64,000 nt of DNA from positions 1,897,501 to 1,961,500 of the forward strand of contig NZ_CP136594.1 in the NCBI RefSeq assembly GCF_032852305.1, in the 5' to 3' direction. Source of the stretch: Parasphingorhabdus sp. SCSIO 66989. GTDB lineage: Bacteria; Pseudomonadota; Alphaproteobacteria; Sphingomonadales; Sphingomonadaceae. This document shows positions 21,968-25,834 of this stretch, piece after piece. The notes under the pieces were generated by a model. That model ran no database searches and had not been told where the DNA came from. It was given only the letters and a program-made list of their open reading frames with translations. How positions within the stretch are numbered: position 1 is the first letter of the stretch; each line of letters opens with the position of its first letter. Made by a program: the position numbers and the translations under genes.

Positions 21968-23500
21968 ATGCAGGATATTATCGAGGCGCTGGAAGCCAAG
22001 CGCGAAGCGGCGCATCTGGGCGGTGGTCAGAAACGGATCGACGCCCAGCATGCCAAGGGCAAGCTGACCGCGCGCGAACGTCTCGATATCCTGCTTGATC
22101 CGGACAGCTTTGAAGAGCTTGACCAATATGTCGAGCATAATTGCACCGATTTCGGCATGGCGGATCAGAAGATCCCCGGCGATGGTGTTGTCACCGGATC
22201 GGGCACGATCAATGGCCGTTTGGTCTATGTCTTCAGCCAGGACTTCACTGTATTCGGCGGCTCGCTGTCCGAACGCCATGCAGAGAAAATCTGCAAGGTG
22301 ATGGACATGGCGATGAAGGTCGGCGCGCCGGTTATTGGTCTGAATGACTCGGGCGGTGCGCGTATTCAGGAAGGTGTCGCATCCCTGGGTGGCTATGCCG
22401 AAGTGTTCCAGCGCAATGTGCTCGCAAGCGGTGTGGTGCCGCAATTGTCGCTGATCATGGGGCCGTGTGCTGGTGGTGCGGTTTATTCGCCCGCGATGAC
22501 CGACTTTATCTTCATGGTGAAGGACTCGAGCTACATGTTCGTCACCGGCCCCGATGTGGTCAAGACGGTGACCAATGAGGTGGTGACGCAGGAAGAGCTG
22601 GGTGGGGCGGTGACGCACACCACCAAAACCTCAGTCGCAGATGTCGCCTATGACAATGATATCGAGGCGCTGCTGGCGGCGCGGCGCATGATTGACTTTC
22701 TGCCGCTCTCCAATCGCGAGGATGTTCCCGAACGCCCCACCGCCGATGCCTGGGACCGGATTGAGGACAGCCTTGATACGCTGATCCCCGATAACCCCAA
22801 CCAGCCCTATGATATGCATGAGCTGATCCGCAAGACACTCGACGAAGGGGATTTCTTCGAGATTCAGCCAGCACATGCGGCCAATATCATCTGCGGTTTT
22901 GGCCGGGTGGAGGGGCGCACTGTCGGTGTGGTTGCCAATCAGCCGATGGTGCTTGCCGGCTGTCTCGATATCGGCGCGTCGAAAAAGGCCGGGCGCTTTG
23001 TCCGCTTCTGCGATGCTTTTGATATTCCGATCATCACCTTTGTCGATGTGCCGGGCTTCCTGCCGGGCACGGCGCAGGAATATGGCGGCATTATCAAACA
23101 TGGCGCGAAACTGCTCTTCGCCTATGCCGAGGCGACGGTGCCGAAAATCACCGTCATCACCCGCAAGGCCTATGGCGGCGCCTATGATGTGATGGCCTCA
23201 AAGCATCTGCGCGGAGACCTCAACTATGCCTGGCCCAGCGCCGAAATCGCGGTGATGGGCGCAAAAGGCGCGGTGGAGATTATCTTTCGCAAGGAGATGG
23301 GCGATCCGGAAAAGATCGCCGAGCGCACCAAGGAATATGAAGACCGCTTCGCCAACCCGTTTGTGGCGGCGGCCAAGGGCTTTATCGACGAGGTGATTAT
23401 GCCGCATTCGACGCGGAAACGGATCGCGCTGGGGCTACGCAAGCTGCGCAACAAGCAGCTGGAGAACCCCTGGAAGAAGCATGATAATATTCCGCTATGA
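21968..23500 (+). CDS. pccB: Propionyl-CoA carboxylase beta subunit (carboxyltransferase)
   Basis: The 510-residue biotin-dependent carboxyltransferase moves CO2 from carboxybiotin on PccA to propionyl-CoA. Family segments are [14 protein letters not shown] near residue 36, [71 protein letters not shown] near 355 and [14 protein letters not shown] near 400. RBS is AGAGGG. It opens a long plus-strand region ending with pccA at 34143. In related bacteria pccB and pccA are similarly separated by mutase and biotin genes. Acetyl-CoA carboxylation is a possible side activity. Confidence 0.95.
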
Positions 23501-23757
23501 ACTCCATAGCAGTTATCTTTGGTATCGTCTCTTTGGGGATATCTTACATAGGGTCTAAAACCCTCATTAATGGGCTTAAGACTGGCCAAATGTACTTCAT
23601 TGTTCCGAAGCTATTTCACGCAGGGCAATTTGGTCCTTTCGATAGGCAAGACACTCCATTTTTCTTCTGGATTTCAACGTTGTGGGCAAGTTTTTTTAGT
23701 TCAGCCTTTGTCTTCTGGTTGATTTCATATTTGGGAGGCAGGTTTGAAGAATATTAA
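23497..23757 (+). CDS. Small AT-rich membrane protein of unknown function
   Basis: This 86-residue frame begins in the pccB stop (ATGA overlap). Two hydrophobic segments are visible, residues 3-22 ([17 protein letters not shown]) and 55-80 ([20 protein letters not shown]). Codon use is clearly more AT-rich than in pccB and DUF808 on either side. I recognise no family. The overlap and hydrophobicity support a real gene, but no ribosome site of its own is evident. It could be a recent insertion that uses pccB translation. Confidence 0.6.
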
Positions 23758-23823
23758 TAGGGACCGAGATCGTTAGATCTTAGTCAAAACTTTGCTCATT
23801 TCCGAACACACACGAGATTTCTA

Positions 23824-24825
23824 ATGCCCTCAGGCCTAGTTGCCCTTCTCGATGATGTAGCCGCCATCGCTAAAGCCGCCGCTGCATCGATCGATGACGC
23901 CGCCGCGATGGCCAAAGTCGCTGCGGCCTCAGCCGATGACATCGGCACAGCCGCAGCGCGGGCAGGGACCAAGACTGCCGGGGTGGTGATTGACGATGCG
24001 GCGGTGACGCCAAGCTATGTCACCGGCTTTTCGCCGGCGCGCGAATTGCCGCTGATCTGGCGCATCGCCAAGGGCTCGTTTTTCAACAAGCTGGTGATCC
24101 TGTTGCCGATTGCGGTGCTGCTTGGCCAGTTTGCGCCGTTTCTGATCCCGATCATTCTGATTATCGGCGGGCTGTTCCTCAGCTACGAGGCGGCGGAAAA
24201 GGTGCTGGAATGGCTCAAGGTCGATGAGACCAATGTGCATGAGGAACCCGCTGTGGCCGTCGGGCCAGAGCGCGAGGAGGAAATGGCATCGGGCGCGATC
24301 CGCACCGACCTGATCCTGTCGGCGGAGATCATGGCCATCGCCCTCTCCGAAGTAGCCGAGGAAGTCTGGTGGCAACAAGCGCTGGTGCTGGCGCTGATCG
24401 GCGTTGCGATTACCGTGGTGGTCTATGGCGCGGTCGCACTGATCGTCAAAATGGATGATATCGGCCTGCATCTCGCCAAGGAAAATACTGGCGCAACCGC
24501 CGCCTTCGGTCGCGGCCTAGTCGCGTTTATGCCCAAGCTGCTGACCACCATCTCGATTGTCGGCACCCTGGCCATGGCCTGGGTCGGCGGCGGATTGCTG
24601 GTGCATAATGCTGCGGTACTGGGCTGGCACGGGCCTGAGCATTGGATTGAGGGGGCAGGGCATTGGCTTTCCGCTATTGCTCCCGCCGGGCTCAGTGGTT
24701 TTGTGGAATGGCTGGTGTTTGCGGTGCTGTCCGGCATATTGGGTATTGCCATCGGCGCGATTATCGCGCCTATCGCGCACAAGCTGCTGCATTCGAGCGA
24801 TCATGAGGAAGAGCAGATTGCTTAA
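23824..24825 (+). CDS. DUF808 family inner membrane protein (YedI-like)
   Basis: The 333-residue protein matches the DUF808 family (E. coli YedI). The N-terminal SGLVALLDDVAAIAKAAAAS, the segment KTAGVVIDDAAVTPSYVTGF and RELPLIWRIAKGSFFNKLVI are family features. About six to seven hydrophobic segments occupy residues 90-325. The charged stretch VDETNVHEEPAVAVGPEREEE separates the first two membrane segments from the rest. The molecular function of this family is unknown. It has no clear Shine-Dalgarno and starts 66 bases after the small membrane protein gene. Confidence 0.88.
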   Translation: MPSGLVALLDDVAAIAKAAAASIDDAAAMAKVAAASADDIGTAAARAGTKTAGVVIDDAAVTPSYVTGFSPARELPLIWRIAKGSFFNKLVILLPIAVLLGQFAPFLIPIILIIGGLFLSYEAAEKVLEWLKVDETNVHEEPAVAVGPEREEEMASGAIRTDLILSAEIMAIALSEVAEEVWWQQALVLALIGVAITVVVYGAVALIVKMDDIGLHLAKENTGATAAFGRGLVAFMPKLLTTISIVGTLAMAWVGGGLLVHNAAVLGWHGPEHWIEGAGHWLSAIAPAGLSGFVEWLVFAVLSGILGIAIGAIIAPIAHKLLHSSDHEEEQIA

Positions 24826-24841
24826 AGGGTGGTGACTGTGC

Positions 24842-24897
24842 TTGAAAATTCTCGCAAAACATTATAATATCCTTATAATGATAAGGAGCTTATAATG
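24842..24897 (+). promoter_or_regulatory. Promoter with overlapping 8-5-8 palindromic operator and a third half-site
   Basis: TTGAAA (24842-24847), a 17-base spacer and TAATAT (24865-24870) form a good promoter. It is overlapped by the perfect palindrome cattataa-tatcc-ttataatg at 24860-24880. The same half-site ttataatg recurs at 24890-24897, so that its last three bases are the ATG of the next gene. The Shine-Dalgarno aaggag at 24883-24888 lies between. The layout predicts autorepression by the ribbon-helix-helix protein encoded immediately downstream. Confidence 0.75.
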
Positions 24898-25194
24898 CAC
24901 AATGAGCGTGTTACCTATTTGACCAGCGCGGAACGTAAGGCAGAACTCGAAGCCTTTGCCAAGGCGCGCGGCGAATCCGTTGGCAGCGTGCTGCGCGAAG
25001 CTACCGCGCGCTATATAGCGGAGCCGCAATCTGGCCCTACACCAGAAGAGGAAGAGGCGCTGAAAGCGCTTGTTAATGAGGTTAACGACGCTATCCCGCT
25101 TATGAATGCTTCACTTGAAGATATGAGCAAAACCATCCGCAAGACCCGCAGCAAACTTGACAAGACATTGCGCGAGGCAGGAATCCGCAAATGA
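24895..25194 (+). CDS. Ribbon-helix-helix type DNA-binding protein with coiled-coil tail
   Basis: The 99-residue protein has an N-terminal ribbon-helix-helix pattern. A short strand (RVTYLTS) is followed by helix A (SAERKAELEAFAKARG) and helix B after ESVGSVLREATARYIAE. Residues 50-95 are a charged helix (EEEEALKALVNEVNDAIP and SKTIRKTRSKLDKTLRE) likely to form a coiled coil. RHH proteins bind palindromes as dimers or tetramers, and a palindrome overlaps this gene's promoter. The stop overlaps the next gene (ATGA). Unlike a classical antitoxin, its partner shows no toxin fold. The regulator role is inference. Confidence 0.78.
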   Translation: MHNERVTYLTSAERKAELEAFAKARGESVGSVLREATARYIAEPQSGPTPEEEEALKALVNEVNDAIPLMNASLEDMSKTIRKTRSKLDKTLREAGIRK

Positions 25195-25403
25195 GCAGTT
25201 TTTCAGATGCGTTAGGCGCGCTGAAAAATGTCCTTCTTCTGCAAGATAATATGAGTCAGGTGCGACAGGATATTGCTGATCTGACCGACGATGTGGATGA
25301 CCTGAATGATTATGTTGTCTCGATAGACAAACGTGTCGTCCGCATTGAAACCATGATCGAGATGTCGCAGAACGCACCTTCACAGAAAAGGTTGGAAGAA
25401 TGA
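25191..25403 (+). CDS. Small coiled-coil protein paired with the RHH protein
   Basis: The 70-residue protein is almost wholly one amphipathic helix with heptad-like spacing, for example LLLQDNMSQVRQDIADL, then DDVDDLNDYVVSIDKRVVRIE. It has no signal peptide, membrane segment, cysteine or catalytic motif. The gene overlaps both its neighbours by 4 bases, with the RHH gene upstream and mce downstream, so all three are translated together. The likely role is to bind the coiled-coil tail of the RHH protein; this is inference. I recognise no family name. Confidence 0.7.
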   Translation: MSSFSDALGALKNVLLLQDNMSQVRQDIADLTDDVDDLNDYVVSIDKRVVRIETMIEMSQNAPSQKRLEE

Positions 25404-25834
25404 AACTCGGCCCCCTGAATCATGTCGGCGTTGCCACGCCATCCATTCCCGAAAGCATCGCCTTCTACCGCGATGTGATGGGTGCAACAGAAATCCATGA
25501 ACCGTTCGATATGCCCGCACAGGGCGTCAAGGTGTGCTTTGTCGACACGCCTGCGCAAGACGGCGGCCAGGGCACGCAGATCGAATTGATTGAGCCACTG
25601 GGCGAGGATTCGCCAATTCACGGTTTTCTCAAAGCCAACCCCAAAGGCGGGCAGCATCATATGTGCTATGAGGTGCCCGATATCCATGTCGCCAAGGCCG
25701 AATTTGAAGCCATGGGCAAAAAGGTTCTCGGCGAGCCGCGTATCGGCGCGCATGGCACACTGATTTTCTTTGTGCATCCCAAAGATATGGGTGGGGTCTT
25801 GACCGAGATAATGGAAACGCCGAAAGACGGGTAG
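25400..25834 (+). CDS. mce: Methylmalonyl-CoA epimerase
   Basis: The 144-residue vicinal oxygen chelate protein interconverts (S)- and (R)-methylmalonyl-CoA between propionyl-CoA carboxylase and the mutase. The metal-binding H at LNHVGVATPSI (residue 7), the E in TQIELIEPLG, HHMCYEV near residue 89 and E in LTEIME near the end are the expected ligands. The HG segment GAHGTLIFFVHP is conserved. It overlaps the coiled-coil gene by ATGA, so its expression is coupled to the RHH pair upstream. scpA lies two genes downstream. Confidence 0.93.
   Translation: MKLGPLNHVGVATPSIPESIAFYRDVMGATEIHEPFDMPAQGVKVCFVDTPAQDGGQGTQIELIEPLGEDSPIHGFLKANPKGGQHHMCYEVPDIHVAKAEFEAMGKKVLGEPRIGAHGTLIFFVHPKDMGGVLTEIMETPKDG

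What the first reader, a model, noticed from the sequence alone, without database searches (positions are those of the whole stretch)
24842..25403. RHH and coiled-coil gene pair with a promoter-overlapping palindrome and a third half-site on the start codon
The -10 box lies inside a perfect palindrome with half-site cattataa, and the same half-site occurs a third time ending in the start codon of the RHH gene. This layout predicts cooperative autorepression that could also block the ribosome site. The partner is a 70-residue coiled coil with no toxin fold, and the pair is translationally fused to mce. It may be a regulator of the propionyl-CoA pathway with a co-regulator or antagonist.
Basis: partly seen in the sequence, partly recalled or inferred. 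Interest (0 to 1): 0.78.

Follow-up and report, generated by a model that had tools for sequence, protein, structure and literature searches.

The report
Roaming self-regulated gene pair beside mce
Two small overlapping genes, a DNA-binding repressor and a coiled-coil partner, appear to form a self-regulated pair that moves between bacterial species and lodges beside core metabolic genes; it is built like a toxin-antitoxin pair but has no known toxin, and is probably not a dedicated regulator of the pathway it sits in.

Summary
CATTATAA-N5-TTATAATG (24860-24880) overlaps the -10 of an RHH gene (24895-25194) that overlaps a 70-aa coiled-coil gene (CC, 25191-25403), which overlaps mce (25400). 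Among 19 homologous loci, 10 keep a perfect 8+5+8 palindrome and 3 keep 7/8, with symmetric arm changes, so it is very probably the operator. The 'third half-site' on the start codon occurs only in the window (1 of 19).

The pathway-regulator reading is weakened. The pair is patchy (11 of 397 family genomes). Both congeners held lack it: there DUF808 meets mce directly. Its tree conflicts with that of adjacent pccB (AU p 5e-6 or less). The pccB-mce gap is a cargo slot: 18 of 25 pair-free loci hold 243-1234 bp there, including Abi_alpha and GIY-YIG genes. The exact operator occurs once in the window's genome. Diverged RHH-CC pairs, one with a MazE/AbrB-type DNA-binding domain, occur elsewhere, also on Marinobacter and Xanthomonas plasmids, both genes annotated hypothetical.

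Best reading: a horizontally exchanged, autorepressed two-gene module with type II toxin-antitoxin architecture but a coiled-coil partner of no known toxin fold. Binding, complex and toxicity are untested.

The parts
24842..24847 (+). -35-like hexamer TTGAAA
   Evidence: Consensus match, 17-nt spacer to TAATAT. Several homologs show TTGNNN 16-17 nt before TATAAT, by eye.
24863..24870 (+). -10 region: TATAAT (24863-24868) overlapping TAATAT (24865-24870), inside the left arm and spacer of the palindrome
24860..24880 (.). Operator: CATTATAA-tatcc-TTATAATG; two TTATAA cores 11 bp apart
   Evidence: Perfect in 10 of 19 homologous loci, 7/8 in 3 more. Arms change symmetrically in L006, L011 and L015-L017. 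The only exact copy in the genome.
24877..24897 (.).
   Evidence: 2 mismatches; third half-site absent from the 18 other loci.
24882..24888 (+). Shine-Dalgarno-like TAAGGAG
   Evidence: Read directly from the sequence.
24895..25194 (+). RHH gene, 99 aa: N-terminal ribbon-helix-helix (about residues 2-47) and a 45-residue C-terminal helix (50-94)
   Evidence: AlphaFold mean pLDDT 88.5; Foldseek and VIA-align matches to CopASO, CopG, PutA, Arc, VapB12; relative L012 reaches Pfam RHH_1 E 6e-4, just under the cut-off.
25191..25403 (+). CC gene, 70 aa coiled coil with core motif DKRVVRIETMIEM; ATGA overlap with the RHH gene
   Evidence: Alignments A2 and A3: in A3 R48 and E53 are invariant in 25 of 25 rows, R51 and M1 in 90% or more.
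25400..25403 (+). ATGA overlap: CC stop and mce start; right boundary of the cassette
   Evidence: In congeners L098 and L099 the DUF808 gene meets mce at this point instead.
25400..25834 (+). mce, methylmalonyl-CoA epimerase (core gene, right border of the slot)
   Evidence: TIGR03081 E 2.7e-37, above its cut-off; found in 81 of 89 family genomes.
23824..24825 (+). DUF808 membrane protein, another occupant of the pccB-mce slot
   Evidence: Pfam PF05661 E 8e-114; abuts mce in L098, L099, L115 and L123.
23497..23757 (+). 86-aa ORF in the slot (function unknown)
   Evidence: No Pfam family; similar ORF in L006.
21968..23500 (+). pccB, propionyl-CoA carboxylase beta (core gene, left border of the slot)
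   Evidence: Pfam Carboxyl_trans E 8e-199; upstream of the pair in 18 of 19 loci (window; others).

Best explanation
The RHH and CC genes are a self-contained, horizontally exchanged two-gene cassette. RHH dimers bind two TTATAA boxes one helical turn apart over the -10 and repress their own promoter. CC most likely binds the long C-terminal helix of RHH through a coiled coil and tunes or antagonises it, the layout of a type II toxin-antitoxin operon. The cassette lives in the pccB-mce gap, a slot shared with unrelated cargo, and spreads between sphingomonads by homologous recombination in the flanking core genes; ending on the mce start codon keeps mce translated. mce is probably a coupled passenger, not the regulatory target. 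Shown by computation: the operator-like palindrome, its conservation and uniqueness, the RHH fold (predicted), patchiness, tree conflict, the cargo slot, relatives elsewhere. Inferred: binding, repression, the RHH-CC complex, the route of transfer. Unknown: whether CC is toxic.
For: Palindrome kept with symmetric arm changes, exact once in the own genome, and in 7 of 10 other pair genomes the only exact match to a degenerate form is at the pair. Patchy: 11 of 397 family genomes. In congeners L098 and L099 DUF808 meets mce directly. The pair's data reject the pccB tree, AU p 4.7e-6, and pccB data reject the pair's tree, p 8e-68 (16 loci). 18 of 25 pair-free loci hold 243-1234 bp between pccB and mce; of 8 slot cargo proteins scanned 4 have a Pfam family: Abi_alpha, CdiI_2, GIY-YIG, zinc ribbon. 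mce 5' remnants lie before the pair in L002, L003, L004 and L012 and in pair-free L125. Diverged pairs at other sites, one with a MazE-type domain just under the Pfam cut-off (L082); plasmid pairs in Marinobacter and Xanthomonas. Purifying selection on both genes. Flanking-core-gene recombination as a hotspot mechanism: PMC5635113 (passages).
Against: No binding or expression data. All 19 loci of this subfamily lie beside acyl-CoA carboxylase genes (18 downstream of pccB; L011 about 0.6 kb before a biotin-carboxylase gene named by eye), which a pathway regulator would also explain. Three loci (L005, L007, L008) keep only 4-5/8 of the palindrome, and their genomes show no operator match at all. 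The right-arm shuffle test is modest (117 against 110.8 matched pairs, 1.7% of shuffles reach it) and ignores relatedness. No Foldseek match to the RHH model has E below 0.1. The fused RHH-CC model was uninformative (pLDDT 54), so the complex has no structural support. In L087 the RHH frame is broken while CC stays open, which speaks against CC being a potent toxin, unless it is a sequencing error.
Confidence: 0.66

Rival explanations
1. A true type II toxin-antitoxin pair of a new family: RHH (or a MazE-type protein in L082) is the antitoxin and autorepressor, and CC is a toxin that acts as a coiled coil, for example by binding an essential helical partner.
For: Two small overlapping genes, DNA-binding protein first; patchy and exchanged; inserted in a metabolic operon with the site unoccupied in congeners; exchange of the DNA-binding domain on a constant partner; plasmid carriage; other toxin-antitoxin genes in the neighbourhood of L021 (PemK, about 1.9 kb away) and, by eye, of L081, L082, L087 and L101. 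PMC2701414 (passages) uses mobile, patchy two-gene modules as a criterion for new systems and names RHH as an antitoxin hub.
Against: No toxin fold or enzyme motif found. CC open beside a broken RHH in L087. Toxicity untested.
Confidence: 0.3
2. One reading: a local regulator of the propionyl-CoA pathway, RHH repressing and CC acting as co-regulator or antagonist, with mce as the controlled gene.
For: 18 of 19 loci lie downstream of pccB; 8 of 19 end in an ATGA overlap with mce and L008 ends 4 nt before it; an internal promoter under RHH control would feed mce.
Against: Absent from most genomes that have mce (mce in 81 of 89; pair in 11 of 397). In L004, L013, L019 and L020 other sequence lies between the pair and mce; L014-L018 show no mce in the 1.3-3 kb fetched downstream. 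No second exact operator in the own genome or in 7 other pair genomes. Tree conflict. Diverged pairs in other contexts.
Confidence: 0.2
3. A DNA-binding remnant of mobile-element machinery (relaxosome or partition type) with a coiled-coil accessory.
For: RHH proteins of several diverged pairs pass the Pfam NikA-like cut-off; plasmid copies exist.
Against: No relaxase or ParA seen next to the chromosomal pairs read (by eye); window CC and L080 CC have no match in 72,556 plasmids; the model matches RHH domains of many functions.
Confidence: 0.08

Closest known systems
RHH-fronted type II toxin-antitoxin operons such as relBE (PMC2812701, abstract and passages)
   Same: Antitoxin-like RHH gene first, small partner second, overlapping genes, autorepression site at the promoter. 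relO contains a TTGTAATTACAA half-site; the L006 operator is CATTACAA-TGACA-TTGTAATG.
   Different: The partner is a coiled coil without a RelE, ParE, PIN, MazF or GNAT domain; toxicity unknown; cores 11 bp apart here against abutting 12-bp half-sites in relO.
Arc and CopG repressors
   Same: The predicted fold of about residues 2-46 matches CopG (1ea4_H, Z 5.8, rmsd 2.2 over 44 residues) and Arc (1bdv_C, Z 5.7, rmsd 2.3 over 43).
   Different: A 45-residue C-terminal helix and an overlapping coiled-coil partner gene.
Core-gene-bounded hotspots fed by flanking homologous recombination (PMC5635113, abstract and passages)
   Same: Variable cargo between two conserved genes, and transfer that fits recombination in the flanks.
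   Different: Here several cargos end on or beside the start codon of the right-hand core gene, and five loci carry a duplicated 5' end of that gene.
Pfam NikA-like mobilisation proteins (PF21983)
   Same: RHH domain of several diverged pairs exceeds the cut-off.
   Different: No relaxase neighbour noticed at the chromosomal loci; the window's RHH itself did not match the family.

Membership tests
Type II toxin-antitoxin system | Two small adjacent co-directional genes, often overlapping | tested here: met
   4-nt overlap in 17 of 19 loci, 1-nt in 2 of 19.
Type II toxin-antitoxin system | One partner has an antitoxin-type DNA-binding domain and a site at its own promoter | tested here: met
   Predicted RHH fold; conserved palindrome over the -10. 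In silico only; binding not shown.
Type II toxin-antitoxin system | Patchy distribution and horizontal mobility | tested here: met
Type II toxin-antitoxin system | Partner has a known toxin fold | tested here: not met
   No toxin family for CC above a cut-off in Pfam or NCBIfam, none in PADLOC, weak coiled-coil-type hits only in PHROGs.
Type II toxin-antitoxin system | Partner is toxic and is neutralised by direct complex formation | not testable with these tools
   Needs expression and pull-down; the fused model was uninformative.
Ribbon-helix-helix (CopG/Arc/MetJ) superfamily | Beta strand, helix, helix N-terminal domain | tested here: met
   Residues 1-11 extended (no strand assigned in the monomer), then helices 12-24 and 29-42; best VIA Z 5.9 to PutA, 5.8 to CopG. 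Middling Z and no Foldseek E below 0.1, but most of the top Foldseek rows are RHH proteins.
Propionyl-CoA pathway regulator | Operators at pathway promoters other than its own | tested here: not met
   One exact operator in the own genome; in 7 of 10 pair genomes the only exact match is at the pair, 3 of 10 have none. Degenerate sites could be missed.
Propionyl-CoA pathway regulator | Co-inherited with the pathway | tested here: not met
   Pair in 11 of 397 genomes against mce in 81 of 89; tree conflict with pccB.
Plasmid relaxosome accessory (NikA/MobC) | Adjacent relaxase or transfer origin | tested here: inconclusive
   None noticed by eye in the chromosomal loci read; plasmid neighbourhoods only partly read, 4 of 12 records.

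The most novel reading that the evidence does not exclude
An undescribed class of mobile addiction or defence module in which a DNA-binding partner (RHH or MazE/AbrB type) is paired with a pure coiled-coil effector of 57-81 residues, and which, in this slot, persists by fusing its last codon to the start codon of a core metabolic gene, so that excising it threatens expression of that gene.
Probability: 0.28. Interest if true: 0.78.

Novelty: new variant of a known kind. Interest (0 to 1): 0.55.

Why it matters
If right, the unnamed pair is a rare but widely scattered mobile module that current libraries miss: none of the 7 CC proteins scanned against Pfam or NCBIfam passed a curated cut-off, and in the 4 plasmid records read both genes are annotated hypothetical. 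It offers a compact test of whether a coiled coil can act as the effector half of an antitoxin-style operon. The pccB-mce slot is a small hotspot in which unrelated cargo, including a phage-defence-type gene (Abi_alpha), is docked onto a core metabolic gene, so it could be mined for further conflict genes in sphingomonads.

Tried and rejected
Third half-site as part of the conserved mechanism: rejected (0 of 18 other loci). Regulon search: exact operator once in the own genome. In one search three pair genomes (G156, G253, G205) show no match even at 1 mismatch because their palindrome is degenerate, and G374 shows 3 extra 1-mismatch sites against 2 for the reversed control. The pattern was derived from these sites, so it tests uniqueness, not presence. 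Solved-structure search by sequence gave mostly coiled-coil proteins; the one RHH antitoxin chain I recognised (3h87_C) had E 0.42. PADLOC: of 10 proteins only the L021 RHH had a hit (E 0.014). Phages: no match for the L074 CC, the only CC tried there. Plasmids: none for the window CC or the L080 CC; one weak Marinobacter hit from the L021 CC, which led to 11 Xanthomonas plasmids at 36-39% identity, 3 of them opened. Outside the family the module is rare: 20 of 385 class genomes match the CC profile, of which the window and 5 others (L045-L049) have an RHH gene beside CC; 4 of 299 phylum genomes match, of which 2 besides the window are pairs. Fused RHH-CC fold: pLDDT 54, not used. Two-copy mobility in G134 (L089/L090, 94% over 1356 bp): insertion sequences nearby by eye, boundaries not resolved. 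Literature: searches listed no title or abstract start describing this pair or the pccB-mce slot. Only held open-access papers are searched and the listings are capped, so this is not proof of absence.

Limits of counts: genome searches score at most 12-20 candidates per genome, so they are lower bounds. The 30 pair-free mce loci are the best-scoring ones plus the congeners, so biased to near relatives; 25 of 30 show the pccB end. L010 and L013 are the same contig, so L010 was dropped before alignment; L016 and L017, close relatives of L015, were dropped; L011 was left out for want of pccB. Many neighbour names (nrdAB, purC, purS, uvrA, trmFO, sdhB, Phd, MazF in L101, thiolase, the biotin carboxylase in L011, acyl-CoA dehydrogenases, transposases) are my own recognition by eye and come from no call.

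Full report
OBSERVATION. The sequence is as described. The RHH gene (24895-25194), the CC gene (25191-25403) and mce (25400-25834) overlap in series by ATGA. The palindrome CATTATAA-tatcc-TTATAATG at 24860-24880 is perfect and holds the -10; TTATAATG recurs at 24890-24897 and ends in the RHH start codon. mce is a methylmalonyl-CoA epimerase by TIGR03081; pccB and DUF808 lie upstream, and an enoyl-CoA hydratase and methylmalonyl-CoA mutase lie downstream.

THE PROTEINS. AlphaFold on 19 homologs gives helices 12-24, 29-42 and 50-94 (mean pLDDT 88.5). Structure matches are mostly RHH proteins: CopASO, CopG, PutA, Arc, VapB12, TacA. The best VIA Z is 5.9 and no Foldseek match has E below 0.1, so the fold is likely rather than proven. 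No Pfam RHH model matched the window protein; homolog L012 comes just under the cut-off. CC is a coiled coil. Across 25 diverse members R48 and E53 are invariant, and the larger internal gaps are 7 or 14 residues, that is whole heptads. Both genes are under purifying selection: among L015-L017 dN is 0.009-0.039 against dS 0.39-0.62 for RHH, and 0.026-0.058 against 0.30-0.39 for CC.

OPERATOR. Nineteen loci of the same subfamily were collected. A perfect 8+5+8 palindrome stands before the RHH gene in 10 of 19, 7/8 in 3, 6/8 in 3, and 4-5/8 in 3 (L005, L007, L008). Perfect palindromes come in four arm versions (CATTATAA, CATTACAA, CCTTATAA, CCTTATCA), so both arms have changed together, most strikingly in L011, the RHH least like the window's (31%). 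The chance of a perfect one in shuffled 70-bp regions is 0 to 0.0013 per locus; shuffling right arms among 17 loci reaches the observed symmetry in 1.7% of trials. The two TTATAA cores are 11 bp apart, one helical turn. The third half-site is unique to the window and 17 bp from the second core; it does complete an imperfect copy with a 5-bp spacer over the Shine-Dalgarno (24877-24897), which may be a local weak operator. In the own genome the exact site occurs once. In 10 other pair genomes a degenerate form is matched exactly once in each of 7, always at the pair; 3 show none; G374 adds three 1-mismatch sites, against 2 for its control.

WHERE IT SITS. In 18 of 19 loci pccB is upstream; in the window two other ORFs, 1.4 kb in all, lie between. 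In 13 mce is visible downstream; in 8 the CC stop overlaps the mce start and in L008 it ends 4 nt before it. In L004, L013, L019 and L020 other sequence separates them (about 0.3 kb, a DUF808 gene, and twice a thiolase-like gene named by eye); in L014-L018 no mce appears in the 1.3-3 kb fetched. The two congeners held have mce but no pair: their DUF808 gene meets mce directly at the same point, so the pair was inserted, or lost cleanly, exactly at the mce start. Four pair loci (L002, L003, L004, L012) carry a broken copy of the mce 5' end between pccB and the pair, and a pair-free locus with GIY-YIG cargo does too (L125). Among 30 pair-free mce loci, 25 show the pccB end: 7 have 10-119 bp between the genes and 18 have 243-1234 bp. 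Of 8 slot cargo proteins scanned, 4 have a Pfam family above cut-off (Abi_alpha, CdiI_2, GIY-YIG, zinc ribbon) and 4 have none. In 7 of the 30 loci the longest cargo ORF ends on the mce ATGA, as CC does, not counting two 14-codon ORFs. Because mce usually begins ATGAA, any ORF in that frame must stop there, so this alone does not prove selection for coupling; but CC keeps the same C-terminal length where no mce follows (L015-L017).

HISTORY. The pair is in 11 of 397 family genomes by the window protein. A profile search gives 34 of 397; the same 11 have E 1.3e-29 or better, and the next best is 2.3e-14, a diverged RHH. On 16 loci, RHH+CC data reject the pccB tree (AU p 4.7e-6) and pccB data reject the pair tree (p 8e-68). 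For example L002 and L009 have sister pccB genes but distant pairs. The pair has therefore moved between lineages into the same slot, which fits recombination in the flanking core genes, a mechanism proposed for integrase-free hotspots in PMC5635113 (abstract and passages).

WIDER FAMILY. Diverged RHH-CC pairs occur elsewhere in Alphaproteobacteria, in two genomes of other classes in the phylum (L100, L101), in a Desulfobacteraceae MAG (L021), and on Marinobacter and Xanthomonas plasmids with a 4-nt overlap and both genes annotated hypothetical in the 4 records opened. It is rare: the class and phylum profile searches matched 20 of 385 and 4 of 299 genomes, and only 6 and 3 of these, window included, are seen pairs. 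Contexts are diverse; by eye they include nrdA-nrdB, purC-purS, uvrA-trmFO, acyl-CoA dehydrogenase genes and DNA with transposases. L082 pairs the same kind of CC with a MazE-type domain (PF04014 E 4.8e-5, just under the cut-off). Partner exchange, patchiness and mobility are hallmarks used to predict toxin-antitoxin systems (PMC2701414, abstract and passages). RHH and SpoVT/AbrB are two of the three antitoxin DNA-binding types in PMC4803016 (passages).

MECHANISM. Most likely RHH dimers occupy the two boxes and block RNA polymerase, with the right arm close to or over the Shine-Dalgarno in many loci. CC, made in coupled amounts, binds the long RHH helix and modulates it. This is inferred; the fused L021 chain gave no usable model. 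Whether CC also harms the cell is open: its lack of a toxin fold and an open CC beside a broken RHH in L087 argue against, the genetic behaviour argues for. A feature that defines known toxin-antitoxin systems (a known toxin fold) was tested and not met, so I do not file it as one, only say that it is built like one.

VERDICT. Observation confirmed; autorepression well supported in silico; third half-site incidental or local; pathway-regulator reading weakened in favour of a mobile, self-regulated, possibly selfish pair in a cargo slot. Interest 0.55.

Noticed in passing
pccB-mce gap: window 23501-25399 and L098, L099, L103-L130: Variable cargo slot between two core genes in Sphingomonadaceae: 18 of 25 pair-free loci hold 243-1234 bp (Abi_alpha in L122, CdiI_2 in L112, GIY-YIG in L125), several cargos ending on the mce start codon.
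   Followed up: partly
L125:982-1056 in the orientation of mce: A pair-free locus with a 25-codon duplicate of the mce 5' end upstream of a GIY-YIG endonuclease gene, like the remnants at pair loci L002, L003, L004 and L012; a homing-type route into the slot is conceivable.
   Followed up: partly
L082:971-1653 (- strand): A CC gene paired with a MazE/AbrB-type DNA-binding protein instead of an RHH protein, near an Xre/MbcA-like antitoxin and a tyrosine-recombinase-like gene (both named by eye).
   Followed up: partly
L089 and L090: Two 94% identical copies of a diverged pair on two contigs of one genome (G134), over 1356 bp, with transposase-like genes nearby (names by eye).
   Followed up: partly
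L131-L134: Plasmid-borne pairs in Marinobacter and Xanthomonas, 4-nt overlap, both genes annotated hypothetical.
   Followed up: partly
L007, between mce and the mutase gene: A ParE-type toxin gene (PF05016 E 2.2e-7) sits just downstream of mce in a pair-bearing locus.
   Followed up: no
window 24877-24897: An imperfect second palindrome with the same 5-bp spacer lies over the Shine-Dalgarno and start codon; its right half-site is absent from the 18 other loci.
   Followed up: partly
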